A DNA stretch of 64,000 nt from positions 1 through 64,000 of the forward strand of contig NZ_JAMXMC010000007.1 in NCBI RefSeq assembly GCF_024055665.1, in the 5' to 3' direction. This stretch comes from Ideonella oryzae (GTDB lineage: Bacteria > Pseudomonadota > Gammaproteobacteria > Burkholderiales > Burkholderiaceae_C). Numbering within the stretch: position 1 is the stretch's first letter; each line of letters starts with the position of its first letter. Position numbers and translations under genes: made by a program. A model generated the notes under the pieces. The model was not told the DNA's origin. It ran no database searches and was given only the letters and a program-made list of their open reading frames with translations. Of this stretch, positions 1-16,155 are shown piece after piece.

Positions 1-132
1 GCCGCATACCGCCAGCCAGGTATGCCGAGCAACTGCGTCAGCAGGCAGGCGACGCCGCTCGTCACGAGATCCCTGCCCAGATCCATTAACCTTCAACCCC
101 AGGACCCCAACCGAATCACTGGTGCGGCTGAA

Positions 133-198
133 GGGGGCAGGTCAGAATGGCGGACCCCTTGCTACTTCACATTGGTACGGCCTGGGGGGGGCAGGTCA
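133..198. repeat. Two 12-bp direct repeats resembling an insertion-sequence end
   Basis: The 12-mer GGGGGCAGGTCA occurs at 133-144 and again at 187-198, 54 bp apart, in a stretch with no convincing gene. Repeated short motifs spaced like this are known at the termini of IS21-family elements, so this may be the end of an IS or its remnant. No transposase reading frame can be tied to it: only a 28-codon open tail ending at 89 enters from the left edge, and I do not recognise it. The rest of 1-211 shows nothing I can name. Confidence 0.3.
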
Positions 199-211
199 CT
201 GGGCCCCGCAT

Positions 212-296: not shown

Positions 297-419
297 TCAG
301 ATCTGGAAGTCGTAATCGACGATCAATGGCGCGTGGTCGCTGAATTTCTGGTCTTTGTAGATGGCCGCCTGACGAGCCTGCTCGGCCAAGGCCGGCGTGG
401 CCAGGTGGTAGTCAATGCG
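297..419 (-). pseudogene. Duplicated 3' end of xthA (last ~40 codons)
   Basis: This stretch encodes the C-terminus of exonuclease III from the Arg-X-Asp-Tyr-His-Leu-Ala segment to the stop. It is nearly identical at DNA level to 5234-5354, the same segment of the intact gene. The longest uninterrupted match is about 38 bp, and there are a few scattered substitutions. The last two residues are Gln-Ile here and Asp-Leu in the intact copy. Homology stops abruptly near 419, so there is no start or catalytic domain. I infer it is the displaced host end of xthA left on the far side of the inserted island, because it keeps the terminator at 212-249. Confidence 0.75.
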
Positions 420-531
420 ACAAAAAACCTGCATTATTCCAAGTCCGTAGCAATCAGGTTGCGTCGCTAATGTCATTGATGGGCATCGCTCTGACGGTGA
501 AGCGCACATAGGAAGGACGCCTCAAACGCCG

Positions 532-1668
532 TTAGATTGAGCGCCACCAAGTCGCGCGTTCGGCGTCTGCAATCGACATCTGGGTACTATTGTCCCGCCG
601 GCCTTCATTGAGTGAGTGCATGATCTGAAGGCCTGGTGCTGAGGTGTTGTCATAGACCTGATAGACCACGCCGTCTGGCGTTCTCTCAAAGCGTGCGACT
701 GGCTGGGCGAAGTTCGCCATCTCTGGGATCTCAAGCTTCAGGGTATTGAGGCCGCCTCTAGCGTGTGCAAAGCGAATGCCATGGCGCTCCCCTGTATGAG
801 CGCTCTGCACTTCAGCTACGCCATCGAAGAAGGTGTGGGCGACACGCAAGGGAATCTGGGTTTGAGTGGGTCGAGTAGACTGATTGGCCTTCCTTAGCCG
901 CATCAGAAGCACGGTTCCTGCAGGCGCAACAGGTGGCATAGCGGCGCCACCCGCACCCGCAGGGCCCCCCTCCCGACCCGCTGCTGCCTCGCCACGGTGG
1001 GCACCAGGTACCGGTGGAGGTAGCACCCGACGAGACCCGAATAGTGGTTGCCTACCTTGAAGACCACGACCAGCGCCATTGCCTCTAGGCCTGTCCGCCT
1101 GTGCCCGCGCCTCCTCGACAACGTAGCCATCAAGGACAAGCCGCTCGAGCAGTTCTCCGTCAAGTCGGATTGCTAACCTACTCTCGGTGTCCTTCCACGA
1201 CTCAAGTGCATGTAGCGCTTGGCCAATCACCGGGGCATCTACCGGAACGTCCACCTGCAGTCCTGCCTCGACGTTCACATACAAGCCGGAACGAGTGAGA
1301 TTGTTGGAGCCAACAATCAAACGAGCCTCCTCCTCATTCCTGAACAGGTACAGCTTGGGGTGAAAGACTCCCGACGCCTCATTGTGATACACGAAGGTCT
1401 CAATGCGTCCGTAAGCACCCAGGTCAAGAAGCGCCCGAAGACCCTCCATGGTGGTGTTTTGGATGTCGATTCCAACCACCACAGATAGCTGTCCACCGCG
1501 CTGCAGAAAGTTCGCGAAATGGGCGGACAAGTGAGCCATCCCTGAGGCTCGGACCCAGGCCACTGCAATGTCGAGTGAATCCCAGTAAGGATCCACGCCA
1601 TTGACCTGATCAACATGCCGCAGGAACGCTGTCCCAAAGCGGGTGGCGAGGGGTTGGTTGTAGAACAC
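532..1668 (-). CDS. PLD-fold (HKD) restriction endonuclease-like protein
   Basis: The 378-residue protein has an N-terminal phospholipase D-type nuclease half with one HxK motif (His103, Lys105, in HPKLYLF) followed by VGSNNLT, the signature of the BfiI/NgoFVII group of restriction nucleases. Such enzymes work as dimers and need no metal. Residues ~195-255 form a Gly/Ala/Pro/Arg-rich linker, and the last ~120 residues form a separate domain that may bind DNA. The domain order and size resemble BfiI. The start is GTG at 1668 with GGAGG eight bases upstream; no ATG fits better. It is the last gene of the island, 127 bp after the methyltransferase gene. I infer that it is the cleavage subunit; it could also be an orphan PLD nuclease. 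Confidence 0.7.
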   Translation of the reverse strand: MFYNQPLATRFGTAFLRHVDQVNGVDPYWDSLDIAVAWVRASGMAHLSAHFANFLQRGGQLSVVVGIDIQNTTMEGLRALLDLGAYGRIETFVYHNEASGVFHPKLYLFRNEEEARLIVGSNNLTRSGLYVNVEAGLQVDVPVDAPVIGQALHALESWKDTESRLAIRLDGELLERLVLDGYVVEEARAQADRPRGNGAGRGLQGRQPLFGSRRVLPPPVPGAHRGEAAAGREGGPAGAGGAAMPPVAPAGTVLLMRLRKANQSTRPTQTQIPLRVAHTFFDGVAEVQSAHTGERHGIRFAHARGGLNTLKLEIPEMANFAQPVARFERTPDGVVYQVYDNTSAPGLQIMHSLNEGRRDNSTQMSIADAERATWWRSI

Positions 1669-1795
1669 GAGAGACCTCCGCTGTTTTGAGTGCGTTTATC
1701 TCTCCAATGCTACATGCCGGGCTGATGCAGACTGGGGCTTGAGCTGGACCTGACCTGGTTCGGCGGGTCGAAGTCACGCACCAACCAGGCAGGAC

Positions 1796-2701
1796 TCAGT
1801 CTGTGGACGCGGAGTAAGCAGGCAAAGGCACCACCCCATCTGGAAAGTTGGACATCAACTCTTGGTAGGCCCGAACCTTTGGCCCCTTGGTCTTGACCGC
1901 TGGCGGCTTCGCGAAGATGAGGATGTACTCGTGGACGTTCTTGAAGAGAAAATTCGGCGGATAGGGGTAGCTTCCGAAGATGGGGCGCTGTCCATTTGCC
2001 GATCCCCACCTGCCGCCGGTTCCATCTTTGTTCCAGATGATCTCATTGACCATTACAAACCCGATTTGACGCAGCAACACTGCGAAGTCTGTGGCGAGAG
2101 GGAACGTGAGCAATCCGTGGTCGGTGTGCTGGTTGACGTTGGCCGTGACGATGCACAGCTTTCGGCCGGGCTTCAAGACCCGAAAGCACTCTTCAAAGAC
2201 TGGACGGATAGACTCAAGGAAGTCACCGTATCCTTCGATTGCTCCAAGATTTGAGGCGCCGTCGCCATAGTCCGCCTTGTTCCAATAGGGCGGGCTCGTG
2301 ACTACAAGTCCGACGCTGCCCGTGTCCACGAAGTGCAGATTCCGACTGTCGCCGTTAACGACGAGAAGCGGATCCGAGTGCTTCGAATCGTGTCCCTTGA
2401 GCTTTTTGCACTCTTGTTCGATGGTGCGGACGTAGGTTGGATTCTGGTCCACACAGATGGCGCGCCGACCCAAAGGAATCGCTGCCCGAGCGGTCGTTCC
2501 AGTGCCAGCAAACGGATCAAGAACAGTCTCACCGTGGAAGCTGAAGAGCTTGGTCAGTCGATGCGGGATCTCCAATGGGAAGACCGCCGGATGAAGATCG
2601 TGGGAAGTGTTCGCGATGGCCCAGACTGTCTTTGTGTACTCCCGCCACTCCTCCTTCGTAAGCTTGCTTCTCTCTTTGTCTTCAGGAGTAGGTGTACTCA
2701 T
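1796..2701 (-). CDS. Site-specific DNA methyltransferase (SPPYW type)
   Basis: The 301-residue protein is a DNA amino-methyltransferase. The SAM-binding motif I, DPFAGTGTT, is at 62-70 and the catalytic SPPYW motif at 136-140. SPPY is most common in N4-cytosine enzymes, DPPY/NPPY in N6-adenine enzymes, so N4-cytosine is the more likely product, but this is inference. Motif I precedes the catalytic motif. The region after 180 would hold the target-recognition part. Its start overlaps the end of the upstream methylase gene by 20 bp, so the two are probably translated from one mRNA. It likely protects one strand of the sequence cut by the PLD nuclease downstream. Confidence 0.85.
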   Translation of the reverse strand: MSTPTPEDKERSKLTKEEWREYTKTVWAIANTSHDLHPAVFPLEIPHRLTKLFSFHGETVLDPFAGTGTTARAAIPLGRRAICVDQNPTYVRTIEQECKKLKGHDSKHSDPLLVVNGDSRNLHFVDTGSVGLVVTSPPYWNKADYGDGASNLGAIEGYGDFLESIRPVFEECFRVLKPGRKLCIVTANVNQHTDHGLLTFPLATDFAVLLRQIGFVMVNEIIWNKDGTGGRWGSANGQRPIFGSYPYPPNFLFKNVHEYILIFAKPPAVKTKGPKVRAYQELMSNFPDGVVPLPAYSASTD

Positions 2702-4865
2702 CGCTTGTTCTTTCCTCAGCAGTAAGGGACTCGCAACGGCCCTCGTTCCATTCCGGCATCTTTGCAGCGGTCACGCCGCTCGTGAAAGTGAGCAAACTCT
2801 GGATGAAGCGGGGATCCAGGTCTAGCGCCTCGACGATCAATGCATCGAGAGCGTCCCGCGTCGAGTGAGCGCTATTGGTGGAGTACGCCAACGATGTGCG
2901 ACCACGATTCACGCTGATAACTGGATTGCGCTGCGCCATGGCCCAGATAGCCTCACCCAGCTGTGCCAACGTCCCATCAACCGAGTGAGAACCGAATAGG
3001 CGCCCAATCGGCAACGTCCAGAGACTACCCCGCGAGACATGAAATCCGTCGCCGTTTACATGCCACCACCAGAACGCAAATCGACTAACAAGAAGGGCGT
3101 ACACCCTTGCTGCATCCTCCCTTGACGCACAGTAAAGCGCATGCAGCGGGTGCTCAGACAGGGTGCCGGCGCTTTGTTCCCACTCTGGAGCACCGAGCAT
3201 CACATTAAGAAAGTTGTAGGCAGTGGCTCCTACATAGACTGTCCGTTCGTCCCCTTGGAGCGTCTCATGCAGAGTGGCACGCCCGAAACCTCGGACAGCG
3301 TGCTCCAAGACTCGAGTGATTTGGTGGGCCTGCTGGAAGGCGACTGCCTCGAGGGTTCCGTTAACCTTTGGGACCCCTCGAGTGATGTCTGTGTCGACGG
3401 GTGTAAAGGCTATCGATTCCAACATCTGCGCGCGACTGTCTGCCCGCCATTTCCTGAGCGGTCCAGAAGCAATCATTGAGCGGGTCTCTGCTTCTTGCCG
3501 AGTCCAAATGACAATGGCGTTCCGAGTCTTGACGTCCTCTCCAAAAAGGGCGTGGGGCTCTCTGTCAAAGAACGCAAAGCGCCATTGCCCAGCCGTCCTG
3601 GCTATAAGTGACCGAAGTGCCACAAACTGCTTCCCAGTGCTGCATCCAACAGAAAGCGGAAGCACCATAGCGCCGCCATGCGAGGCGGGTGAGCTCAGCC
3701 GAATCATCTGCTCAACAAAGAGCGGATACATATCGGCTGTCACACGGGGCGCAGCTCTGATGGTCTCAAACCTTGCAGCCAGCTCAAGAAGGTCTCTTCC
3801 TTCACCAATCTCGGCATAAGGCGGATTGCCGATGACCAGGTCAGCACCCTCGCCGATCTCCGGAAACAATTCGCTGAATGGCAGCGAGTTGCCCGCCGGC
3901 AAACGGGTCAAGCACCTGACCTCAGGCAAGACCCCACCTACAAGCGATTGAACGGCCTCGCGTCGAACAGCTAGGCCAGGAGCGATGGTGGGAACGCGCA
4001 GCCCGGGGTCCAGCGCCAGCGAATCTTGATGGGCAAGATTGAGGCGCAGCAAGTGCCAAGCACAAATCGGCGGGAGGCCTCGTTGCCTGATGTCTGCCGC
4101 GCACTCCGTCCACAGCACAAACGCCGATGCATTCACCACCCAGGAGTCAATATCGGCACCAAAAATTCGGGAGGTCGCCAAGTCAAGGCTTCCCGCACCG
4201 TCACTACTCGTCGAATTCGCGGCCTTCAGGTATGAGCGGAGAAAGACGCCAGTGCCGCAAGCTGGATCAAAAGCGGTGTAGCCCCGGCGACGAGCTTCGA
4301 GTCCTTGGAGCGAATTTCGAACCATGAAGTCAGCGACGTCGCGCGGGGTGTAGAAGACACCTTCTTCCTTCTTTTTCTGGCGTGCCTCTATGGTCTCCGG
4401 CTTATGTCGGACACTCAGTCTGCTCGCCTGACCGTGTGGGTCCAGCACATAGGGCAGGAGTTCTGAATATGCTTGAGCATCGGCGCGCGCGCGGAGGCAT
4501 CGCTCCACTTCGGCCAAGACGGCGGGTCTAACCACCGCGCTGAGTCGTTTAGCCGTCGTAGACCCGAGGAACCAGTCTTCCGCACTGCGCAGGTCGACTT
4601 CTGCAGAGATAGCTTCGGAGGCCACGCCTACGACCCAGATGGCAACTAGTTGCCAAGCAGCCAACTCATCGGTAGGCCGACTACCTGCAGTCTTATAAGT
4701 TCGGGCTCGAACTGAATAGAGGTTGTCCCAAAGTGTCGTCGCAACGTCGGACTTCAGTTCAGGACGGAGGAGCCCAACTGCGCGGCGCAGATCTGCTCCG
4801 TAGTGCTCTGCAACTGTTGAAAGGACATGACGCCGGCGAGGCGTCGCAAGACATGGTTTGGTCAA
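2682..4865 (-). CDS. N-6 DNA methylase (gamma-type, Eco57I-like)
   Basis: The 727-residue protein carries GVFYTP (motif X, 169-174), DPACGTG (motif I, 200-206) and NPPY (347-350), the X-I-IV order of gamma-class N6-adenine methyltransferases. The long C-terminal part is expected to recognise the target, and no nuclease motif is evident in it. The ~160 residues before motif X form a helical extension. The start is uncertain: TTG at 4865 gives the longest reading frame but has no clear ribosome binding site. It lies 30 bp downstream of the ribbon-helix-helix gene and overlaps the second methyltransferase gene by 20 bp. Two methyltransferases beside one PLD nuclease suit an asymmetric (type IIS) recognition site needing separate protection of each strand. 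Confidence 0.85.
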   Translation of the reverse strand: MTKPCLATPRRRHVLSTVAEHYGADLRRAVGLLRPELKSDVATTLWDNLYSVRARTYKTAGSRPTDELAAWQLVAIWVVGVASEAISAEVDLRSAEDWFLGSTTAKRLSAVVRPAVLAEVERCLRARADAQAYSELLPYVLDPHGQASRLSVRHKPETIEARQKKKEEGVFYTPRDVADFMVRNSLQGLEARRRGYTAFDPACGTGVFLRSYLKAANSTSSDGAGSLDLATSRIFGADIDSWVVNASAFVLWTECAADIRQRGLPPICAWHLLRLNLAHQDSLALDPGLRVPTIAPGLAVRREAVQSLVGGVLPEVRCLTRLPAGNSLPFSELFPEIGEGADLVIGNPPYAEIGEGRDLLELAARFETIRAAPRVTADMYPLFVEQMIRLSSPASHGGAMVLPLSVGCSTGKQFVALRSLIARTAGQWRFAFFDREPHALFGEDVKTRNAIVIWTRQEAETRSMIASGPLRKWRADSRAQMLESIAFTPVDTDITRGVPKVNGTLEAVAFQQAHQITRVLEHAVRGFGRATLHETLQGDERTVYVGATAYNFLNVMLGAPEWEQSAGTLSEHPLHALYCASREDAARVYALLVSRFAFWWWHVNGDGFHVSRGSLWTLPIGRLFGSHSVDGTLAQLGEAIWAMAQRNPVISVNRGRTSLAYSTNSAHSTRDALDALIVEALDLDPRFIQSLLTFTSGVTAAKMPEWNEGRCESLTAEERTSDEYTYS

Positions 4866-4895
4866 AGAGTGCCCCGAACGAAGAAGCGGAAGTCC

Positions 4896-5090
4896 CTAGC
4901 GGGACTCTGCCAAGAGAGGCCACTGCTCGTTGATGTACCGCTCTGCGGCATCGCGAATGACCCACGCCACAGAGACCTTCTTCTGTCGCGCGATGTCCTG
5001 AAGCGTGGAGTAAACCTCAGGGGGTAGGCTCGCCGTTGCCCTAGCGGCGCGTGGCTTACCAGATGGCTTGCGGCCTCGCTTGGATGGCAT
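4896..5090 (-). CDS. Small ribbon-helix-helix (CopG/Arc-like) protein
   Basis: The 64-residue protein has a basic N-terminal tail, then a segment (TASLPPEVYSTL, residues ~19-30) matching the beta strand and first helix of ribbon-helix-helix DNA-binding proteins, and a second helix (VSVAWVIRDAAERYI). It is the first gene of the island operon, 30 bp before the gamma methylase gene. GGAG lies directly against the ATG, so translation may be weak. RHH proteins of this size usually repress their own promoter, so it may control expression of the restriction-modification genes. An antitoxin-like role is possible, but no toxin gene is adjacent. Confidence 0.65.
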   Translation of the reverse strand: MPSKRGRKPSGKPRAARATASLPPEVYSTLQDIARQKKVSVAWVIRDAAERYINEQWPLLAESR

Positions 5091-5110
5091 CTCCAGTGCC
5101 CCTGCTGAAT

Positions 5111-5170
5111 TTGATGCAGCACTTTACATCACATTGCATCCCAAAGCTGTGCGGGTCAACCGCACAGTGG
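5111..5170 (-). promoter_or_regulatory. Candidate promoter/operator of the restriction-modification operon
   Basis: Upstream of the RHH gene are two inverted repeats. One is a perfect 8-bp repeat (CTGTGCGG/CCGCACAG) near 5148-5169 whose 5-nt loop completes a TTGACC hexamer on the minus strand. The other is GATGCA/TGCATC near 5114-5142. A repressor bound here would overlap RNA polymerase. No convincing -10 sits at the ideal distance from TTGACC, so the promoter call is tentative. Confidence 0.35.
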
Positions 5171-5233
5171 ACGCAGATTGCATGTGCCATTTGGTGGGCC
5201 GTGGCATCGGCATCAGCTAGTGCCGACGCGCCC

Positions 5234-6028
5234 TCACAGGTCGAAGTCGTAATCGACGATCAACGGCGCGTGGTCGCTGAATTTCTGGTCCTTGTAGATG
5301 GCCGCCTGACGGGCCTGCTCGGCCAAGGCCGGCGTGGCCAGGTGGTAGTCCAGGCGCCAGCCCACGTTCTTCGCATAGGCCTGGCCGCGGTTGCTCCACC
5401 AAGTGTAGGCCTCGCCGGTGGTCTCCGGGTGCAGGCGGCGGTAGACGTCCACCACCCCGGCCTCGTCCAGCAAGCGGGTCATCCAGGCCCGCTCCTCGGG
5501 CAGGAAACCGCTGTTCTTCTGGTTGCCCTTCCAGTTCTTGAGGTCGATTTCCTTGTGGGCGATGTTCACATCGCCGACCAGGATGAACTCGCGCGTGCCC
5601 TTGAGGGCGTGCAGGTGCGGGTAGACCACGTCCAGGAAGCGGTACTTGGCCAGCTGCCGCTCCTCGCCCGAGGAGCCGCTGGGAAAGTAGCAGCTGATGA
5701 TGCTGAGCTGGCGTCCGGGTTTGTCGAATCGCAACTCGACGTAGCGGCCCTCGGCATCGAATTCGGGCTCGCCCAGGCCGATGATGACGTCGCTGGGCTC
5801 GTGGCGGCTGTACACCCCGACACCGGAGTAGCCCTTCTTCTCGGCAAAGTGGAAATGCCCGGCCATGCCGGCCACCGTGTCGTATTTCCCCTGCACGTCG
5901 GGCGCCTGGGCCTTGACTTCCTGCACCCCCATACAATCGGGCGCGATACTCTCCGTCCAGGGCATGAAGCCCTTGCTGGCCGCCGATCGGATGCCGTTCA
6001 GGTTGAGTGTGACCAGTCTGAATCCCAT
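5234..6028 (-). CDS. xthA: Exodeoxyribonuclease III
   Basis: The 264-residue protein matches exonuclease III of the AP-endonuclease (EEP) superfamily, a base-excision-repair enzyme that cleaves abasic sites and removes 3' blocks. It shows LNLNGIR near the N-terminus, the metal-binding Glu in VQEVKA (E37), GDVNIAH, and the terminal SDHAPL with the catalytic Asp-His pair. The start ATG at 6028 has AAGGGA upstream and gives the usual family length; a longer frame upstream lies inside pyrE. The last ~40 codons are duplicated at 297-419, so the 3' end here is probably supplied by the island, and no terminator follows the stop. It diverges from pyrE with 13 bp between start codons. Confidence 0.95.
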   Translation of the reverse strand: MGFRLVTLNLNGIRSAASKGFMPWTESIAPDCMGVQEVKAQAPDVQGKYDTVAGMAGHFHFAEKKGYSGVGVYSRHEPSDVIIGLGEPEFDAEGRYVELRFDKPGRQLSIISCYFPSGSSGEERQLAKYRFLDVVYPHLHALKGTREFILVGDVNIAHKEIDLKNWKGNQKNSGFLPEERAWMTRLLDEAGVVDVYRRLHPETTGEAYTWWSNRGQAYAKNVGWRLDYHLATPALAEQARQAAIYKDQKFSDHAPLIVDYDFDL

Positions 6029-6041
6029 TGAAGTCCCTTCC

Positions 6042-6716
6042 ATGACGAACACCACCCACACCGACCCGCTGGCCCAGGACTTCGTGAAGTTCTCGGTGGA
6101 CGCGGGGGTGCTGCGCTTCGGCGAGTTCACGACCAAGGCCGGCCGGAAGTCGCCGTACTTCTTCAACACGGGCCTGTTCGATGACGGCGCCAAGCTGATG
6201 CGGCTGGGCGAATTCTATGCACGCCGCCTGCTGGCCTCGGGGCTCGCATTCGACATGCTGTTCGGCCCGGCCTACAAGGGCATCACCCTGGCCGCTGCGG
6301 TGGCCATCGGCCTGGCCAAGGAAGGCCGCAGCGTGCCCTACGCCTACAACCGCAAGGAAGCCAAGGACCATGGCGAGGGCGGCACGCTGGTGGGGGCGCC
6401 CGTCAAGGGCCGGGTGCTGATCATCGACGACGTGATCACCGACGGCGCCTCCAAGCGCGAGGCCGCCGACATGATCCGCGCGGCCGGCGCCACCCCGGTG
6501 GGCGTGGCCATCACGATGGACCGCCAGGAGCGCGCCAGCGACGACCCGGCCAACCCGCGCTCGGGCGTGCAGTACGTCGAGCAGGAGCTGGGCCTGAAGG
6601 TGCTGTCCATCGCCACCCTGGCCGACCTGATGCAGTTCCTGGACACCACCGGCGACCCGACCCTGGCCGCCAACCGCGACAAGGTGGCGGCCTACCGCCA
6701 GCGCTACGGAGTGTGA
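6042..6716 (+). CDS. pyrE: Orotate phosphoribosyltransferase
   Basis: The 224-residue cytoplasmic enzyme joins orotate and PRPP to form OMP in de novo pyrimidine synthesis. It shows FGEFTTKAGRKSPYF at the N-terminus, LLFGPAYKGI-like and YNRKEAKDHGEGG segments, and the PRPP-binding motif VLIIDDVITDG. The ATG at 6042 gives the family length; the frame is open further upstream, but only inside xthA. There is no obvious Shine-Dalgarno sequence, and its promoter must lie within xthA. The DUF4124 gene follows at once and is probably co-transcribed. Confidence 0.95.
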   Translation: MTNTTHTDPLAQDFVKFSVDAGVLRFGEFTTKAGRKSPYFFNTGLFDDGAKLMRLGEFYARRLLASGLAFDMLFGPAYKGITLAAAVAIGLAKEGRSVPYAYNRKEAKDHGEGGTLVGAPVKGRVLIIDDVITDGASKREAADMIRAAGATPVGVAITMDRQERASDDPANPRSGVQYVEQELGLKVLSIATLADLMQFLDTTGDPTLAANRDKVAAYRQRYGV

Positions 6717-6718
6717 GC

Positions 6719-7444
6719 ATGGCGCGGCCGACCCCGATGAGCTTTCGCCCCGGGTTGGCCCGGTCGGTCGCCGTGGCGGCCGGCTCCGTGGCCGGGCTGT
6801 TGGTGTCGCCCGCCCAAGCCGTGACACCGGCCAAGGAGGGGGCCTCCGCCCCCATCTATTCCTGCGTGGATGCCAATGGCCGTCGCCTGAGTTCGGACCG
6901 CCCCATCCCCGAATGCCTGAGCCAGGAGCAGAACGTGCTGGGCAAGGATGGCACGGTGCGCAAGAAGGTGCCCCCGCTGCTGTCGCCCGAACAGCAGTCC
7001 CAGAAGGACGCCGAGCGCGCGGCCCAGGCCCGGGCCCAGGCGGCGCGGATGGAACAGGTTCGCAACGACCGACTGCTGCTCTCGCGCTACCCCACCCTGG
7101 CGGCCCATGACCAGGCGCGCCAGCGCGCGCTGGAATCGACCCAGAAGGCCATCGACACCATCCAGGTGCGCATTGCGCAGCTGGAGACCGAGCGGGTGGT
7201 CCTGGCCAACGAACGCGCCAACCAGGGCTTCAAGGCGGTGCCGGAGAACCTCAAGATGCGCACCAACGCCAACGACGGCAGCCTGGAGGCGCAGCGCACC
7301 CTGCTGCACAGCATGGAGGCCGAACGGGCCCGCATCAACCTGCAGTACGACAACGAGCGCCAGCGTCTGGCCCTGCTGCTGGCCGGCCTGCCGCCGGGGG
7401 CTCAGGTGGATGCCGGGGCACCGGCCGCTCCGACGTCCCGCTGA
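6719..7444 (+). CDS. DUF4124-domain exported protein
   Basis: The 241-residue protein has an N-terminal export signal ending near VSPAQA, then a DUF4124 segment (IYSCVDANGRR to about residue 70), a family common in beta- and gammaproteobacterial envelopes with no defined biochemical role. The remainder is rich in Gln, Glu, Arg and Ala and should form long helices or a coiled coil. The ATG at 6719 follows GGAG by 7 nt. A GTG at 6713 overlapping the pyrE stop is the alternative start. It sits 9 bp upstream of another small exported protein, so the two may work together in the periplasm, but no function can be assigned. Confidence 0.8.
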   Translation: MARPTPMSFRPGLARSVAVAAGSVAGLLVSPAQAVTPAKEGASAPIYSCVDANGRRLSSDRPIPECLSQEQNVLGKDGTVRKKVPPLLSPEQQSQKDAERAAQARAQAARMEQVRNDRLLLSRYPTLAAHDQARQRALESTQKAIDTIQVRIAQLETERVVLANERANQGFKAVPENLKMRTNANDGSLEAQRTLLHSMEAERARINLQYDNERQRLALLLAGLPPGAQVDAGAPAAPTSR

Positions 7445-7453
7445 AGACCCACC

Positions 7454-7819
7454 ATGCGTTTCAACACCCTTCTGCCGCTGCCGGCCCTCGGCCTGGGCCT
7501 GATGCTGGCCAGCGCGACCGCCCTGGCCGGGCCCACCGATTACCGCTGCCCGGCGCCGCACACGCTGCGCGCCGCCTTCACGCCGCGGGATGCCATCGTC
7601 ACCTTCGACGGCCAGAACTACACCCTGCGCCGTGTGCGCGACAGCCGCGAGGCCCGCTTCACGAACGGCAAGCAGGGCGTGAGCCTGGCCCTGTCCGGCA
7701 GCAACGCCACCTGGCAGCGCAAGGGCGAGGACGATCTGGTCTGCCGCAAGGTGGTGGCTTCGCTGGAACCTGAGGCGCTGGCCGGCCAGCGACCGGCACC
7801 GACCACGCCGGCCCGCTGA
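7454..7819 (+). CDS. Small exported protein, MliC-like (lysozyme inhibitor fold) candidate
   Basis: The 121-residue protein has a signal peptide (MRFNTLLPLPALGLGL, cleavage near ALAGP). The mature part has a YRCPAP start, an IVTFDGQNYTL strand, SGSNATWQRKG and a late Cys (VCRKV). This pattern of two cysteines bracketing beta strands with a WxxKG turn resembles MliC/PliC periplasmic lysozyme inhibitors, but the match is by eye. It is the last gene of the pyrE-DUF4124 set and converges on gatB, with a GC hairpin between them. Confidence 0.55.
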   Translation: MRFNTLLPLPALGLGLMLASATALAGPTDYRCPAPHTLRAAFTPRDAIVTFDGQNYTLRRVRDSREARFTNGKQGVSLALSGSNATWQRKGEDDLVCRKVVASLEPEALAGQRPAPTTPAR

Positions 7820-7824
7820 GCGGC

Positions 7825-7844
7825 GCGGCCCTTCCCAGGGCCGC
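7825..7844. terminator. GC hairpin between convergent genes
   Basis: GCGGCCC (7825-7831) and GGGCCGC (7838-7844) form a perfect 7-bp stem with a 6-nt loop between the ends of the small exported protein gene and gatB. There is no T run on either side, so it is at best a weak bidirectional terminator. Confidence 0.4.
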
Positions 7845-7865
7845 CCGCCTCGCTCATCGGCGGCC

Positions 7866-9317
7866 TCAGCCGAGCTTCTGCTTGAGCAGCTCGGTGGCTT
7901 GCGCCGGGTTGGCCTTGCCCTTGGACGCCTTCATCACCTGGCCGACCAGGGCGTTGAAGGCCTTGTCCTTGCCGGACTTGTACTCCTCGACCGACTTGGC
8001 GTTGGCGGCGATCACCTCGTCGACGATCTTCTCCAGCGCGCCGCTGTCGTTCATCTGCTTGAGGCCCTTGGCCTCGATGACCGCGTCCACGTCGCTGCCG
8101 GCGCCGGTCCACAGAGCGTCGAAAACCTGACGCGCAGCGTTGTTGGAAATGGTGCCGTCCTGGATGCGGCCGATCAGCTGCGCCAGCAGGGCCGGGCTCA
8201 CCGGGGCATCCTGGAGCTCGCGCTCCTCGGCGTTCAGGCGCTTGCTCACCTCGCCCATCAGCCAGTTGACCACCAGCTTGGGCTGGCCGCAGGCGTCGCG
8301 CGCGGCCTCGTAGTAGCGGGCGAAGGCCAGCGACTGGGTCATCATCGTCGCGTCGTAGGCCGGCAGGCCGTCGGCCTGCTGAAAGCGCTCGGCCATCGCA
8401 CGCGGCAGCTCGGGCATCTCGCCCCTGACGCGCTCGACCCACTCGGGAGCGATGACCAGCGGCGGCAGGTCCGGGTCGGGGAAGTAGCGGTAGTCGGCCG
8501 AGTCTTCCTTGCTGCGCATGGCCCGGGTCTCGCCCTTGTCCGGGTTGTAGAGCACCGTGGCCTGCTGGATCGTGAAGCCGTCTTCCAACTGGTCGATCTG
8601 CCAGTTCACCTCGTAGTGCACCGCGTCCACCAGGTAGCGGAAGCTGTTGAGGTTCTTGATCTCGCGGCGGGTGCCGAAGGGCTCGCCGGGCTTGCGCACC
8701 GAGACGTTGACGTCGCAGCGGAAGGAGCCTTCCTGCATGTTGCCGTCGCAGATGCCCAGCCACATGACCAGCGCATGCAGGGTCTTGGCGTATTCGACGG
8801 CCTCCTGGGCCGAGCGCATGTCGGGCTCGGAGACGATCTCCAGCAGCGGCGTGCCGGCGCGGTTCAGGTCGATGCCCGACTGGCCGTGGAAGTCCTCGTG
8901 CAGGCTCTTGCCGGCATCTTCCTCCAGGTGGGCGCGGGTGAGCTGCACCACTTTCTGGCGGTCACCGACGAAGAACGCCACGCTGCCGCCCTGCACCACC
9001 GGGATCTCGAACTGCGAGATCTGGTAGCCCTTGGGCAGATCCGGGTAGAAGTAGTTCTTGCGGGCGAAGATGGACAGCGGCGCCACCTTGGCGCCCACGG
9101 CCAGGCCGAAGCGGATGGCCCGCTCCACCGCGGCGCGGTTGAGCACCGGCAGCGTGCCGGGCAGGGCCAGGTCCACCGGGCAGGCCTGGGTGTTGGGCTC
9201 CGCGCCGAAGGCGGTCGAGGCGCCGCTGAAGATCTTGGACTGCGTGGAGAGCTGGACGTGGTTTTCCAGGCCGATCACGACCTCGTAGCCACGCACGAGT
9301 TGGGGTTGGCTGCTCAT
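7866..9317 (-). CDS. gatB: Asp-tRNA(Asn)/Glu-tRNA(Gln) amidotransferase subunit B
   Basis: The 483-residue protein is the tRNA-binding, kinase-like subunit of the GatCAB amidotransferase, which converts Asp-tRNA(Asn) and Glu-tRNA(Gln) to the amides. It shows the family N-terminus ([15 protein letters not shown]), the [17 protein letters not shown] block, and a C-terminal YqeY-like helical tail. The usual Ile in GLEIHVQL is Asn here. It lies one base after the gatA stop and is the last gene of gatC-gatA-gatB. Its presence implies that the organism makes at least Asn-tRNA(Asn) or Gln-tRNA(Gln) indirectly. Confidence 0.97.
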
Positions 9318-9318
9318 C

Positions 9319-10805
<1,487 letters not shown>

Positions 10806-10809
<4 letters not shown>

Positions 10810-11105
10810 TCGATCACCTTGGGCACGAGGAACAGGCCGCCATCGACGGCCGGGGCGCTGCGCTGGTTGCGCTCGCGGTTGTTGCCTTCGGTGACGGCGT
10901 CCTCGCGCAGGCGCAGCTGCACGTCCATCACCGCCGACAGCGGGGTGTACAGGGGTTCGACACCGCTGGTGTCGACGGCGCTCATCTGCTCGACGATGCC
11001 GAAGAAGTCGTTGAGCTGGACCAGCATCGCATCGGCTTCGGCACCGGAAAGCTCCAGGCGCGCCAGCTCGGCGATGCGGCTCACGTCCGCAGGGGTCAGG
11101 GCCAT
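10806..11105 (-). CDS. gatC: Asp-tRNA(Asn)/Glu-tRNA(Gln) amidotransferase subunit C
   Basis: The 99-residue protein matches GatC, which wraps around and stabilises GatA in the complex. It begins [19 protein letters not shown] and ends with the conserved [13 protein letters not shown]. The ATG at 11105 was chosen because it gives the family length; the frame is open further upstream without a family match. It heads the operon and diverges from mreB across 361 bp. Confidence 0.95.
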
Positions 11106-12510
<1,405 letters not shown>

Positions 12511-12549
12511 GACTCCGGCGGGCGCCTGGCGCGCCCCGGGACGACACCC

Positions 12550-13500
12550 ATGCCGCTCGGCACGCTCGACCGCAACCCGCCGCCGTTCTTCCACCAGGGC
12601 CCTTCGGCCCTGTCGAGGCTGCTGCTGGCTGCCGCCCTGGCCATCTTCCTGATGGCCGCGGATCACCGCTTCGCGCTCATCCAGCCCCTGCGCAACGCCC
12701 TGGCCACCGGCCTGCTGCCGGCGGTGCGCGTGCTCGGCCTGCCCGTGGCCCTGGTGGGCGGCAGCGCCGACTATCTCGGCGGCCTGGACCAGGCCCTGGC
12801 CCGCAACCTGACGCTGCAGCGCCAGCTGACCGCGCAGGCGGAGCAGGCCAGCCGGGCCGACCGTCTGGCGCAGGAGAACCTCCAGCTGCGCGGCCTGTTG
12901 GGCCTGCGCCCGGCCACGCCGCCCCGCAGCCAGGTGGCCGAGGTGCTCTACGAGGCTCCTGACCCTTACGTGCACAAGATCTTCATCGACCGCGGCACCC
13001 AGCAAGGGGTGGCCGAAGGTGCGCCCGTGATGAACGAGCACGGCATCCTGGGCCAGGTGACCCGGGCCTATCTGCTGTCGTCCGAGGTGACGCTGCTGGC
13101 CGACCGCGACGCCACCATCCCGGTGCTCAACGCCCGCACCCAACACCGCAGCGCCGCCTTCGGCTCCGGTGACGAGGGGCAGATGGAGCTGCGCTTCGTG
13201 GCCGCCAACGACGACGTGAAGGTGGGTGACACACTGCTGACCAGCGGCGTGGACGGCATCTACCCGGCCGGTGTGCCGGTGGCCACAGTCACCTCGGTCA
13301 ACCGCCAGGGCGAGGGTGGCTTCGCCCACATCGGCCTGGCCCCGGTGGCCAAGACCGGCGGCCTGCGCTTCGTGCTGCTGGTGGGGCCGCTGGACAAGAA
13401 GGCCGACACCGCCGTGGCTGCGGCCGTGGCGGCCGCCAGCGCCGCGGCATCCGCCGCCTCGGCCGCCAGCGCCAACGAGTTCGGGAGCGCACCGCGATGA
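12550..13500 (+). CDS. mreC: Rod shape-determining protein MreC
   Basis: The 316-residue protein has one transmembrane segment (residues ~20-38), a coiled coil (~75-115) and the periplasmic double beta-barrel typical of MreC (for example VHKIFIDRGTQQGV and VNRQGEGGFAHI). MreC links MreB filaments to PBP2 and RodA. The C-terminal ~30 residues are an Ala/Ser-rich low-complexity tail. Its stop overlaps the mreD start by 4 bp. Confidence 0.95.
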   Translation: MPLGTLDRNPPPFFHQGPSALSRLLLAAALAIFLMAADHRFALIQPLRNALATGLLPAVRVLGLPVALVGGSADYLGGLDQALARNLTLQRQLTAQAEQASRADRLAQENLQLRGLLGLRPATPPRSQVAEVLYEAPDPYVHKIFIDRGTQQGVAEGAPVMNEHGILGQVTRAYLLSSEVTLLADRDATIPVLNARTQHRSAAFGSGDEGQMELRFVAANDDVKVGDTLLTSGVDGIYPAGVPVATVTSVNRQGEGGFAHIGLAPVAKTGGLRFVLLVGPLDKKADTAVAAAVAAASAAASAASAASANEFGSAPR

Positions 13501-14021
13501 GCATCATGCCGCGGGGTGCGGACCAGCTGCTGCTGCCGGTCAACCCCTGGTTCCTGTGGGCCTCGCTGCTGCTGGCCCTGGCCCTGAACCTGATCCCCCT
13601 GGGCTCCACGCCCTGGATGCCCGACTTCGTGGCCCTGGTGCTGGTGTTCTGGAGCGTGCACCAGCCGCGCCGGGTGGGCATCACCACCGCCTTCTTCTTC
13701 GGCTTGCTGATGGACGTGCATCACGGCTCGCTGCTGGGCCAGCACGCGCTGGCCTACAGCCTGCTGGGCTTCTTCGGCATCGCCATCCACCGCCGGGTGC
13801 TGTGGTTCGGCCTGTCCGGCCAGATGGCCCAGGTGGCGCCCGCGTTCTTCGCGGCCACCCTGTTGACCCTGCTAGTGCGTGCCGTGGCCGGCGATGGCTG
13901 GCCGGGCTGGAGCGTGCTGGTCGCGCCGCTGGCCCAGACCCTGCTGTGGCCGGTGGCCAGCCTGGTGCTGCTGGCGCCGCAGCGCCGCCCACCAGACCCC
14001 GACAAGAACCGCGTCCTGTGA
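13497..14021 (+). CDS. mreD: Rod shape-determining protein MreD
   Basis: The 174-residue, strongly hydrophobic inner-membrane protein has about five transmembrane helices. MreD is an elongasome component of the family that binds MreC/PBP2. The identity rests on size, hydrophobicity, conserved patches (GLLMDVHHGSLLGQHAL) and operon position. It starts inside the mreC stop (ATGA) and ends 13 bp before mrdA. Confidence 0.93.
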   Translation: MSIMPRGADQLLLPVNPWFLWASLLLALALNLIPLGSTPWMPDFVALVLVFWSVHQPRRVGITTAFFFGLLMDVHHGSLLGQHALAYSLLGFFGIAIHRRVLWFGLSGQMAQVAPAFFAATLLTLLVRAVAGDGWPGWSVLVAPLAQTLLWPVASLVLLAPQRRPPDPDKNRVL

Positions 14022-14034
14022 GCCGGGTGCCCGC

Positions 14035-16155
14035 ATGACCGAGTTGCGCAACATCCAGCGGGAACTGGAGCGCTTCCGCTTCCGCTCGATCGCCGCTGCG
14101 GCCTTCGTGCTGCTGAGCTTCGGCCTGCTCGTCAGCCGTCTGGTGGTGCTGCAGGTGGCCCGGCACGATGAACTGTCCACCCGGGCCGAGGCCAACCGCA
14201 TCGCGGTGCTGCCCATCGTGCCGCAGCGGGGCCGCATCCTGGACCGCAACGGCGTGGTGCTGGCCACCAACTACACGGCCTACACGCTGGAGATCACCCC
14301 CTCCAAGGTGAGCAATCTGGAGCAGACCATCGACCAGCTGGCTCAGCTGATCGACATCCAGCCGCGCGACCGCAAGCGCTTCAAGCGGCAGATGGAGGAG
14401 AGCAAGAGCTTCGAGAGCCTGCCCATCCGCACCAAGCTGACCGACGAGGAGATGGCGCGCTTCCTGGCCCAGCGCTTCCACTTCCCCGGCGTGGACATCA
14501 AGGCCCGGCTGTTCCGCAGCTACCCGCTGGGTGACACCGCCAGCCACCTGCTGGGCTACATCGGCCGCATCAACCAGGCCGAGAAGACCGCGATGGAGGA
14601 CTGGGACGAGGACCGCCTGGCCAACTACCGCGGCACGGAATACATCGGCAAGCTGGGCCTGGAGCAGAGCTACGAGGCCGAACTGCACGGTCGCACCGGC
14701 TACGAGGAGGTGGAGACCGCCGCCAGCGGCCGCGCGGTGCGGCGCCTGAACAGCCACCCCCCCACCCCCGGCAACGAGCTGCACCTGTCGATCGACATCA
14801 AGCTGCAGCACCTGGTGGAGCAGCTCTACGGCGACCGCCGCGGCGCGCTGGTGGCCATCGACCCGCGCAACGGCGAGGTGCTGGCCTTTGTCTCCAAGCC
14901 CACCTTCGACCCCAACCTCTTCGTCGACGGCATCGATTTCGACAGCTGGCGCGAGCTCAACGAATCGATCGACAAGCCGCTGCTCAACCGGGCGCTGCGC
15001 GGCACCTATCCGCCGGGCTCCACGTTCAAGCCCTACATGGCGGTGGCGGCGCTGACCACGGGCAAGCGCGATCCGCACCTGGTCATCCAGGACAACCTGA
15101 GCTACACCTTCGGCGGCCACACTTTCGGCAGCCCCGAAACCGACCGCGCCGGCCCCAAGGACATGCGGCTGGCCATCATCACCTCGTCCAACGTTTACTT
15201 CTACAGCCTGGCCGTGGAGATGGGCGTGGACCTGATCCACGAGCAGCTCGAGCCCTTCGGCTTCGGCCGCAGGACGGGCATCGACCTGGAGGGCGAGGTC
15301 ACCGGCGTGCTGCCCTCCACCGAATGGAAGCGGCGCACCTACAAGCGGCCGGAGCAGAAGAAGTGGTACCCCGGCGAGACGGTGTCGCTGGGCATCGGCC
15401 AGGGCTACAACAACTTCACGATGACCCAGCTGGCCACCGCCATGGCCACACTGTGCACTGGCGGCCAGCGCTTCCAGCCCCGGCTGGTGCGCGAGGTCGA
15501 GGACCTGGTCTCGCACGACAAGCGCATCGTCTCCTCCGACGCCCTGCCCCCACTGCCCCTCAAGCCGCAGGATGTGTCGCTGGTGCTGGACGCCATGGTG
15601 GGCGTGGCCCAGGCCGGCACCTCCTCGCGGGTGTTTGCCGGCGCGCCCTACGTGAGCGGCGGCAAGACCGGCACCGCCCAGGCCGTGACCATGCGCAGCG
15701 GGGAGAAGTACAGCGCCGCCCGGGTGGCCGAGCACCAGCGCGACCACTCGCTCTACATCGCCTTCGCGCCGCGCGACAACCCGCGCGTGGCCCTGGCCCT
15801 GATCGTCGAGAACGCCGGCTGGGGCACGGCAGCCGCAGCCCCGATTGCGCGCCGCGTGCTGGACTATGTGCTGATGGGACAGTACCCCAGCGAGGAAGAC
15901 ATCGCCCTGGTGCGCGAAGGCAAGTCCGTTGGCCCGCCGGTGGGCACCCCGCGCCGGGTGGAGGACGTGCCGCTGCCTCACACCAACCCGGTGGACATGC
16001 CACTGGGATTGGCCCCCGCGCCGGCCGCCAGCGGCGCCTCCGCGGCGGGCGCGGTGCCGGCAGCCAGCGGTGCGACGGCCGCGTCCCGTTCCGCGTCTCG
16101 TCCGGCCGCCAACCCGATCCCGGCCGCCCCCGTGGCCTCAGGAGCCTCACGATGA
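14035..16155 (+). CDS. mrdA: Penicillin-binding protein 2 (elongation transpeptidase)
   Basis: The 706-residue class B PBP cross-links peptidoglycan during lateral growth. There is one N-terminal membrane anchor (~20-42), a pedestal domain, and a transpeptidase domain with the three penicillin-binding motifs: STFK (Ser329), SSN (384-386) and KTGT (544-547). The last ~50 residues, after the folded domain, are an Ala/Ser/Pro-rich tail not needed for catalysis. The ATG at 14035 gives the normal N-terminus. The stop overlaps the rodA start (ATGA). Confidence 0.97.
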   Translation: MTELRNIQRELERFRFRSIAAAAFVLLSFGLLVSRLVVLQVARHDELSTRAEANRIAVLPIVPQRGRILDRNGVVLATNYTAYTLEITPSKVSNLEQTIDQLAQLIDIQPRDRKRFKRQMEESKSFESLPIRTKLTDEEMARFLAQRFHFPGVDIKARLFRSYPLGDTASHLLGYIGRINQAEKTAMEDWDEDRLANYRGTEYIGKLGLEQSYEAELHGRTGYEEVETAASGRAVRRLNSHPPTPGNELHLSIDIKLQHLVEQLYGDRRGALVAIDPRNGEVLAFVSKPTFDPNLFVDGIDFDSWRELNESIDKPLLNRALRGTYPPGSTFKPYMAVAALTTGKRDPHLVIQDNLSYTFGGHTFGSPETDRAGPKDMRLAIITSSNVYFYSLAVEMGVDLIHEQLEPFGFGRRTGIDLEGEVTGVLPSTEWKRRTYKRPEQKKWYPGETVSLGIGQGYNNFTMTQLATAMATLCTGGQRFQPRLVREVEDLVSHDKRIVSSDALPPLPLKPQDVSLVLDAMVGVAQAGTSSRVFAGAPYVSGGKTGTAQAVTMRSGEKYSAARVAEHQRDHSLYIAFAPRDNPRVALALIVENAGWGTAAAAPIARRVLDYVLMGQYPSEEDIALVREGKSVGPPVGTPRRVEDVPLPHTNPVDMPLGLAPAPAASGASAAGAVPAASGATAASRSASRPAANPIPAAPVASGASR

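What the first reader, a model, noticed from the sequence alone, without database searches (positions are those of the whole stretch)
297..5354. Island inserted in the 3' end of xthA with duplication of the gene end
About 120 bp of the xthA 3' end occur twice, at 297-419 and 5234-5354, in the same orientation and almost identical, and the ~4.8 kb between them is lower-GC accessory DNA. This is the footprint of an element that uses the 3' end of a housekeeping gene as its attachment site and rebuilds the gene. xthA is not a well-known integration site.
Basis: partly seen in the sequence, partly recalled or inferred. Interest (0 to 1): 0.72.

Follow-up and report, generated by a model that had tools for sequence, protein, structure and literature searches.

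The report
Defence-gene island inserted inside xthA gene
A small block of restriction-modification genes sits at one exact spot inside the DNA-repair gene xthA and rebuilds the gene's end; related, larger islands at the same spot instead go with a whole spare xthA whose target site looks recoded with silent changes, as if to protect it from the island's own integration enzyme.

Summary
The element is 411-5347 (4,937 bp). The crossover lies not at the gene end but at the TA of codon Tyr228, so the element brings its own last 37 codons of xthA. It encodes no integrase. The same site is used repeatedly in Burkholderiales. Eight genomes have xthA cut at this TA; seven of them also have a large serine recombinase (LSR) and a complete spare xthA (all on one contig in three), the eighth has only the arm before its contig ends. 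The window's right end carries the same arm (GYRGG, 17 nt, TA). Over 18 insertions the sequence shared by both junctions shrinks to TA, as expected for an LSR. Fifteen islets, the window's included, restore xthA with an element-borne 3' end; six have defence or toxin-antitoxin cargo by profile match. Most surprising, and outside the window: spare genes use GTT (6/7) and AGR (6/7) exactly inside the target site, against 0/82 other genes, which suggests self-immunity. How integrase-less islets move is inferred, not shown.

The parts
297..410 (-). native-side xthA 3' end (stop codon to Tyr228 codon), right junction (attR-type), cut off from its gene
   Evidence: in relatives with a close empty xthA the downstream copy is mostly the native-like one; in this genome both copies are about equally close to G008 (0.88 and 0.87)
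409..410 (.). crossover dinucleotide TA, right junction
   Evidence: smallest sequence shared by both junctions over 18 insertions is TA
411..432 (-). P arm of the element: 17 nt, then CCTGC (on the minus strand GCAGG, 17 nt, TA)
   Evidence: GYRGG 17-18 nt before TA in 26 of 32 downstream copies, 0 of 84 complete xthA
532..1668 (-). phospholipase D-like nuclease, probable restriction endonuclease
   Evidence: Pfam PLDc_2 E 1.8e-7; RE_NgoFVII E 0.004, below its cut-off
1796..2701 (-). DNA methyltransferase, N6_N4_Mtase
   Evidence: Pfam PF01555 E 2.6e-39; PADLOC MTase_II E 2.9e-59
2682..4865 (-). large N6 DNA methyltransferase, Eco57I-like
   Evidence: Pfam N6_Mtase E 3.4e-9, Eco57I E 8.3e-7
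4902..5090 (-). ribbon-helix-helix (CopG-type) small protein, possible regulator
   Evidence: Pfam RHH_1 E 1.3e-5
5234..5347 (-). element-side xthA 3' end (37 codons and stop) that completes the host gene
   Evidence: foreign origin shown for relatives, not for this genome
5346..5347 (.). crossover dinucleotide TA, left junction
5348..5365 (-). B arm of the target: 13 nt, then CCCAC (minus strand GTGGG, 13 nt, TA)
   Evidence: GYRGG at 13 nt in 65 of 84 complete xthA
5348..6028 (-). native xthA 5' part (codons 1-227), next to divergent pyrE at 6042-6716

Best explanation
The segment 411-5347 is an integrase-less islet of a family of site-specific integrative elements that use one dinucleotide, the TA of codon Tyr228, inside xthA. 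LSR-bearing members have the order P'-LSR-cargo-spare xthA-(cargo)-P. Their LSR recombines attP (P-TA-P') with attB (B-TA-B') in xthA, which removes the last 37 codons, and the spare xthA replaces the lost function. Islets such as the window's have the layout B-TA-B''-cargo-P-TA-B': the right junction is an ordinary attR, while the left junction carries an element-borne C-terminal end that restores the gene. SHOWN by sequence: the site, the TA core, the arms, an LSR in seven of eight genomes with a truncated xthA, the spare gene, and a break in similarity at TA in seven of eight islets that have a close empty relative. INFERRED: that the LSR did the cutting; that islets spread by accretion, i.e. 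an LSR element inserts into the islet's rebuilt site, carries the islet along, and later leaves by attL x inner attR, stranding the islet with a C-terminal end from its previous host. The cargo here is a probable type II restriction-modification set, a selected or addictive defence cargo.
For: Recurrence: 23 of 399 family genomes gave two or more matches to the last 45 residues of xthA; 15 of the 23, the window's and G012 included, have the extra copy downstream of xthA in the same orientation, as has G001, which was not in that draw. P arm (GYRGG 17-18 nt before TA): 26 of 32 downstream copies, 14 of 17 counting only those not brought in by the arm pattern; random positions 296 of 20,000; complete xthA 0 of 84. 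Shared junction sequence shrinks to TA; G012 shares 0 + TA + 0. Truncated xthA at TA: G001, G447, G822, G826, G831, G832, G835, G023. In six the LSR starts 9-57 bp after the truncation; in G001 it lies at the other end, the element being inverted, which a palindromic core allows. LSR domains Resolvase, Recombinase, zinc ribbon (two LSRs; the ribbon just below its cut-off). P and P' arms agree at 17-20 of 28 positions in six elements, shuffled about 8. Break at TA: identity to the nearest empty relative falls by 0.18 or more from the last 60 bp before TA to the first 57 bp after it in 7 of 8 islets with a relative at 0.90 or more (G312 only just), against 2 of 17 empty genomes, one reciprocal pair. 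One element (G832) carries a MobA/MobL relaxase. G447: xthA without pyrE that paired with a spare gene; a truncated xthA with LSR was then found 24 kb away on the same contig.
Against: The window genome holds no LSR of this family, nor do 12 of the other 14 islet genomes; G012 and G824 have only a 34-36% relative elsewhere. G023 has the truncation and the arm but no LSR: the contig ends about 0.6 kb further on, the genome is 65% complete, and no match was found. In four of the seven LSR genomes the spare gene and right end lie on another contig, so their unity is inferred. The islet's left half-site is B'-like, so its circle would hold an attR-type site (P-TA-B''), which a standard LSR does not integrate without extra steps. 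The window islet itself shows no clear break at TA (0.97 before, 0.86 after), so the foreign origin of 5234-5347 is not shown here. Islet ends resemble spare genes more than native ones in only 4 of 15. Three loci with duplicated ends (G062, G147, G370) and one of two extra copies in G834 and G836 lack the arm. Of four xthA genes suspected of being spares (G447, G282, G836, G075), a truncated partner was found for one, G447. No circle or recombination was observed.
Confidence: 0.82

Rival explanations
1. Insertion of a restriction-modification gene complex with long target duplication, without any site-specific enzyme (the kind described for RM genes by the Kobayashi group, recalled).
For: RM cargo, ~120-bp direct repeat, no integrase in the element; in the window genome both copies are alike.
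Against: Same TA and same arm in many genera with non-RM cargo; the proximal end is foreign in most testable relatives, whereas a target duplication would give two native copies; LSR elements at the same site.
Confidence: 0.06
2. The islets are dead remnants: an LSR element lost P'-LSR-cargo-spare 5' part by exchange at TA between attL and the spare gene's own site, or by homologous recombination, and nothing moves any more.
For: No LSR in most islet genomes; a three-gene set shared by LSR element G001 and by G282 in matching order relative to xthA and the arm; 4 of 15 islet ends closer to spare genes, against 0 of 26 downstream and 1 of 57 native ends.
Against: 11 of 15 islet ends are closer to native ends of other genomes, which fits transport from host to host better; spare and native 5' parts are only 65-70% identical in six elements, so homologous exchange exactly at TA is unlikely.
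Confidence: 0.3
3. A tyrosine recombinase or other integrase, since lost, made the islets; the LSR elements use the site independently.
For: Islets carry a gene-end replacement, as tyrosine-integrase islands do (recalled).
Against: Tyrosine recombinases need 6-8 bp identical overlap (recalled); here it shrinks to 2 bp. Islets share the P arm of the LSR elements. No such integrase was noticed among the ORFs listed (read by eye, not searched with a profile).
Confidence: 0.04
4. The apparent recoding of the spare genes is only their lower-GC codon usage or shared ancestry.
For: Spare 3' ends have mean GC 0.53 against 0.64 for native (six spare genes); only seven genes, two nearly identical; in the 92-row tree six of the seven fall in one 12-row set (SH-aLRT 95), so the recoding may have arisen only two to four times.
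Against: In the rest of the spare genes GTT is 12% of Val and AGR 9% of Arg; at the site 6/7 and 6/7. Five other Val columns show GTT in at most 2 and eleven other Arg columns AGR in at most 1. Six non-spare genes in the same 12-row set (G028, G075, G192, G222, G282, G836) are among the 84 genes with no GTT and no AGR at the site. A single spare clade is rejected (p-AU 0.007 with seven in 92 rows; 6e-6 with six in 64 rows; quick trees with long branches).
Confidence: 0.35

Closest known systems
Dehalococcoides ssrA genomic islands (PMC3146451; passages read)
   Same: Ccr-like serine recombinase, insertion in a conserved gene, direct repeat of the gene's 3' end, tandem islands, and 15 of 31 islands without the integration module, suggested there to be cis-mobilizable elements
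   Different: target is an RNA gene with a 20-bp repeat; two recombinases; no spare target gene mentioned in the passages seen
Staphylococcal cassette chromosome (SCC) in rlmH
   Same: LSR, one conserved coding gene, gene end kept, tandem and recombinase-less forms (recalled); the only NCBIfam match of the G001 LSR at E<=0.001 is CcrB, weak: E 2.8e-6, 26 bits against a cut-off of 900
   Different: different gene, a single recombinase seen, crossover 37 codons inside the gene, LSR forms go with a whole spare gene
Cis-mobilizable elements (CIMEs) and accretion of integrative elements
   Same: integrase-less element between att-type sites, arrays at one site
   Different: described mainly for tyrosine-integrase ICEs (recalled); movement not tested here
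LSR elements targeting conserved coding sequences (Durrant 2022, PMC10083194; passages read)
   Same: many LSRs share one site in one coding gene
   Different: a word search of the main text found no 'xth', 'exonuclease' or 'exodeoxyribonuclease'; supplements not seen
RM gene insertion with long target duplication
   Same: RM genes between ~100-bp direct repeats
   Different: as recalled, no conserved arm, no recombinase, both copies derived from the target

Membership tests
LSR-encoded integrative element (relatives with truncated xthA) | recombinase with Resolvase, Recombinase and zinc-ribbon domains at one end | tested here: met
   domains in two LSRs (zinc ribbon slightly below gathering score); position in seven genomes; not found in the eighth, G023
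LSR-encoded integrative element (relatives with truncated xthA) | 2-bp crossover core, attP symmetric and longer than attB | tested here: met
   TA; arms agree at 17-20 of 28 in six elements; motif 17 nt from the core in P, 13 in B
LSR-encoded integrative element (window element) | encodes its recombinase | tested here: not met
   none among the ORFs of 411-5347; none in the genome
Cis-mobilizable element | no recombination or transfer genes, flanked by att-type sites | tested here: met
   the left site is B-TA-B'', not a P'-bearing attL
Cis-mobilizable element | moves with a related autonomous element | not testable with these tools
   needs cells, or two near-identical islets in different hosts
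SCC (cassette chromosome) | insertion in rlmH with ccr recombinases | tested here: not met
   xthA; CcrB model matched far below its cut-off
Long-target-duplication RM insertion | both copies derive from the target | tested here: inconclusive
   not met in 7 of 8 testable islets; the eighth is the window's own, where both copies are alike
Type II restriction-modification system (cargo) | methyltransferase and cognate endonuclease | tested here: inconclusive
   methyltransferases clear; the endonuclease is only PLD-like

The most novel reading that the evidence does not exclude
The LSR-bearing xthA elements are a natural break-and-rescue system: they destroy the host's DNA-repair gene by site-specific insertion and carry a rescue copy whose target site has been silently recoded (Val GTG to GTT, Arg CGN to AGR in N-V-G-W-R) so that their own recombinase cannot use it. 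Losing the spare then means losing xthA. Islets, which include the window's, are the tamed form: they rebuild the gene, and most of them (not the window's) differ from native genes in silent codons on the other half of the site, TTG rather than CTG and GCG rather than GCC, which could block the next insertion.
Probability: 0.45. Interest if true: 0.85.

Novelty: new variant of a known kind. Interest (0 to 1): 0.7.

Why it matters
It defines a recurrent insertion site for small islets in Burkholderiales, several of them with defence or toxin-antitoxin genes, that leaves no broken gene and no integrase, so it would be missed by usual island finders. It gives an LSR family with a predicted 2-bp core and well-defined attP and attB. 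If the recoding is confirmed, mobile elements have solved by silent mutation the problem that engineers of break-and-rescue constructs solve by design, and islet mobility and self-immunity become directly testable.

Tried and rejected
The G001 LSR was sought in plasmids, phages and viral contigs: no close relative (best about 37% identity over half of the protein); 1 of 369 class genomes at E<=1e-40, 35% identical. A first genome contigs pattern had one N too many and found nothing; the corrected one gave 29 loci, of which 8 (Amylibacter, three Pelosinus, Pedobacter, Lentisphaeria, Sporomusa, Desulfotignum) showed no xthA match and were taken for chance. Homologous recombination, target duplication, another integrase and a truncated paralogue were considered (see rivals). 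I expected the islet C-terminal ends to descend from spare genes; only 4 of 15 looked so (6 of 22, one of which, G447, proved to be a spare gene). I first took the 41-bp gap in A. soli and the 119-bp gap in G447 for cargo-less islets; they are right ends of LSR elements. In the smaller tree spare genes fell outside a clade of 52 native and truncated genes; the larger one does not bear this out, as three native genes and one islet gene group with six spares.

Corrections made on checking: thirteen relatives were silently skipped because they were stored on the other strand; repeat the work with them and with 14 further relatives, and the numbers above come from those unless another call is named. 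In one search the row G447 pairs the spare gene's TA with the right junction; its true left junction gives 1 + TA + 0. G023, overlooked at first, was read. Because fewer independent origins of recoding are now certain, I lowered the novel case from 0.5 to 0.45 and raised its rival from 0.30 to 0.35. Rows left out of counts: G282, G829, G836 (unsettled) from the codon and end counts; G062, G147, G370 (no arm) from the islet set; downstream copies without an arm from the end counts. The 82 'other' genes include truncated and chimeric genes and related species, so they are not 82 independent events.

No paper naming xthA as an integration site was found with these searches: (subscription journals and supplements not covered; the single hits were seen in the listing only and look unrelated).
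Full report
OBSERVATION. The repeat is present as described: 126 nt at 297-422 and 5234-5359, 92% identical, direct, spacing 4937. It is the 3' end of xthA, whose complete 264-codon copy reads 6028 to 5234 on the minus strand beside divergent pyrE. The DNA between has GC 0.58, the 1.5 kb before it 0.67. It encodes a PLD-like nuclease, two DNA methyltransferases and a small ribbon-helix-helix protein; no recombinase was seen among its ORFs.

EMPTY SITES. Of 60 genomes searched, the same-genus genomes G008 (95% identical protein) and G013 have a complete xthA, with no second copy of its end in the stretches read.

RECURRENCE. Two same-genus genomes have a second copy of the xthA end downstream: G012 and G001. 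Among 399 genomes of the family 23 gave two or more matches to the last 45 residues. Besides the window's and G012, 21 were listed in full together with G001: in 13 the extra copy lies 0.1-8 kb downstream of xthA in the same orientation; in 5 the second match is a weak paralogue (G182, G285, G321, G326, G356); in 3 it lies on another contig (G076, G241, G335).

THE JUNCTION. Reading with xthA forward, the DNA just before the downstream copy mostly has the form GYRGG-TTTTTTGTCGCATTGAC-TA, TA being the first two bases of codon Tyr228. GYRGG lies 17 or 18 nt before TA in 26 of 32 downstream copies (14 of 17 if loci brought in by the pattern are left out) and at 296 of 20,000 random positions. In 84 complete xthA it never lies there; it lies at 13 nt in 65. 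G062, G147 and G370 have a duplicated end without the arm. For 18 insertions I compared left and right junctions: the stretch common to both shrinks to TA (G012: 0 + TA + 0; G000: 3 + TA + 33, because its two ends are so alike) (G447 corrected). A 2-bp core is the hallmark of serine recombinases (recalled).

WHICH COPY IS FOREIGN. I compared each islet xthA with its nearest empty relative (57 genomes without insertion). Eight armed islets have one at 0.90 or more over 600 bp. In seven (G012, G075, G133, G312, G361, G404, G823) identity falls from 0.92-1.00 in the last 60 bp before TA to 0.54-0.74 in the first 57 bp after it; the downstream copy is closer to the relative (0.68-0.95) in six of them and equal in G312 (0.71). 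The eighth is the window's own: 0.97, then 0.86 and 0.91, downstream copy 0.87, so there the test is indecisive. Control: of 17 empty genomes with an empty relative at 0.90 or more, 2 (one reciprocal pair) show such a fall. Seven other armed islets have only more distant relatives. G147, without arm, shows no fall (0.92 to 0.88).

LSR-BEARING RELATIVES. G001's island contains an LSR (549 aa) and a complete second xthA; the host xthA is cut at TA. The pattern scan of genome contigs gave 29 loci, 20 with an xthA match by tblastn and one more by eye. The sixteen of these genomes not met before were searched: five (Acidovorax sp. NO-1, A. soli, an Acidovorax MAG, Paracidovorax wautersii, a Hydrogenophaga MAG) hold an xthA truncated at residue 228-230 as well as a complete one. 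In all five an LSR 54-70% identical to G001's begins 9-45 bp after the truncation, and pyrE adjoins the truncated copy. In P. wautersii all parts are on one contig: truncated xthA, LSR, HTH protein, MobA/MobL relaxase, spare xthA, 1 kb, native xthA end; in the other four the spare gene and right end are on a different contig. G447's xthA lacked pyrE and paired with a spare gene in the tree; a truncated xthA beside pyrE, followed by an LSR, was then found 24 kb upstream on the same contig. The same search found no truncated partner for G282, G836 and G075. G023 has an xthA cut at TA beside pyrE, followed by 17 nt and CCCAC, i.e. a P' arm, but no LSR in the remaining 0.6 kb of contig nor in that 65%-complete genome. 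G001 has the order of the others in reverse: the core TA is palindromic, so both orientations are possible.

ATT SITES. In six LSR elements P and P' arms, read outward from TA, agree at 17-20 of 28 positions (shuffled about 8; 0 or 1 of 5000 shuffles as good), whereas B and B' agree at 8-12. The G447 and G023 left arms have the same form.

RARITY. With the P. wautersii LSR 1 of 399 family genomes matched at E<=1e-90 (G447). With the G001 LSR 8 of 120 relatives matched at E<=1e-20: G001 itself and seven at 33-46%, some over part of the protein. Of the 24 genomes only G447 has a close LSR; G012 and G824 have 34-36% relatives elsewhere, the window genome none. In the 399-genome draw armed islets number 11 (G000, G012, G075, G133, G144, G223, G282, G312, G361, G404, G440; G282 unsettled) against one LSR element.

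CARGO. By profile, six of the fifteen islets carry defence or toxin-antitoxin genes: window RM; G012 C5-methyltransferase and EcoO109I-like enzyme; G133 CcdB; G223 HicB; G312 AbiLi/AbiLii; G823 SIR2-STAND. Not every cargo was scanned. G836 (unsettled) has an Eco57I-like protein, G282 a PDC-M21B match. Others by reading carry metabolic or unclear genes (G361, G824). Defence cargo is common, not universal.

RECODED SPARE GENES. In the motif N-V-G-W-R, the left half of the target, seven spare genes use GTT in 6 and AGA/AGG in 6; 82 other genes use GTT 0 and AGR 0 times (Val: GTG 67, GTC 13, GTA 2), nor do two unsettled genes. In the rest of the spare genes GTT makes 12% of Val and AGR 9% of Arg codons; binomial 1.8e-5 and 3.5e-6, or 1.3e-4 and 3.3e-5 with the two near-identical genes counted once; absence of GTG alone is weak (p 0.03-0.05). 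Five other Val and eleven other Arg columns of the same genes do not show it. Against independence: six of the seven spares fall in one 12-row set (SH-aLRT 95) together with three native, one islet and two unsettled genes, G001's elsewhere on a long branch; a single spare clade is rejected at p-AU 0.007 (quick tree). On the other half, islet ends use CTG for the Leu codon in 2 of 11 against 56 of 76 in native and downstream ends (Fisher 0.0006) and GCC for Ala in 4 of 15 against 51 of 83 (0.02). TTG is more common in the rest of islet ends too (0.23 against 0.09-0.13, smaller set), so this is suggestive only, and the window's own islet has the native codons.

MODEL. An LSR element inserts at TA, breaks xthA and supplies a recoded spare. 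The truncation removes the residues after Asp227, among them the SDHAP motif with the catalytic His of the exonuclease III family (recalled). The islet layout B-TA-B''-cargo-P-TA-B' follows from standard steps if an LSR element inserts at the rebuilt site of an islet, moves both to a new host, and leaves by attL x inner attR: the islet stays with the previous host's gene end. That fits 11 of 15 ends being nearer to native ends of other genomes than to spare ends. It is inference. The simpler rival, a dead remnant, stays open.

LITERATURE. Passages of PMC3146451 describe the closest parallel, ssrA islands of Dehalococcoides. Passages of PMC10083194 report LSRs sharing a site in a coding gene. 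No paper on xthA as a site turned up. The RM long-target-duplication work was met only through papers in a search listing; its content is recalled.

Noticed in passing
window 1-200: Multi-copy repeat at the very start of the contig: 1-145 and 145-198 match separately at many places in this genome and the genus, probably an insertion-sequence end.
   Followed up: partly
L060 (G361), oriented 3412-14670; L148 (G836); L147 (G834): More than one xthA end downstream of one gene; in G361 two islets in tandem, each ending in a P arm. In G834 and G836 one of the two extra copies lacks the arm.
   Followed up: partly
L031 (G001) 3608-6028 oriented; L059 (G282) 2053-4379: Same three-gene set (NTase and two further proteins) in an LSR element and in an islet-type locus, in matching order relative to xthA and the arm; the G282 NTase matches PADLOC PDC-M21B.
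   Followed up: partly
L159, L160 (G447): 24.6-kb LSR element whose ORFs look, by reading only, like several restriction-type and helicase genes, i.e. perhaps a mobile defence island.
   Followed up: no
L141 (G835) 3666-15249: About 11.7 kb with apparent phosphonate-degradation and transport genes between spare xthA and the P arm (by reading).
   Followed up: no
L115/L152 (Andreprevotia, G829): The P arm and duplicated xthA end also occur in a genus that, as far as I recall, belongs to Neisseriales, outside Burkholderiales.
   Followed up: no
L137 (G832) 10865-11741 oriented: Between spare xthA and P arm: a small membrane-transporter-like ORF and a TetR-like ORF (by reading).
   Followed up: no
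L162 (G023): An eighth xthA cut at the same TA with a P' arm, in an incomplete genome; its LSR and spare gene were not found.
   Followed up: partly
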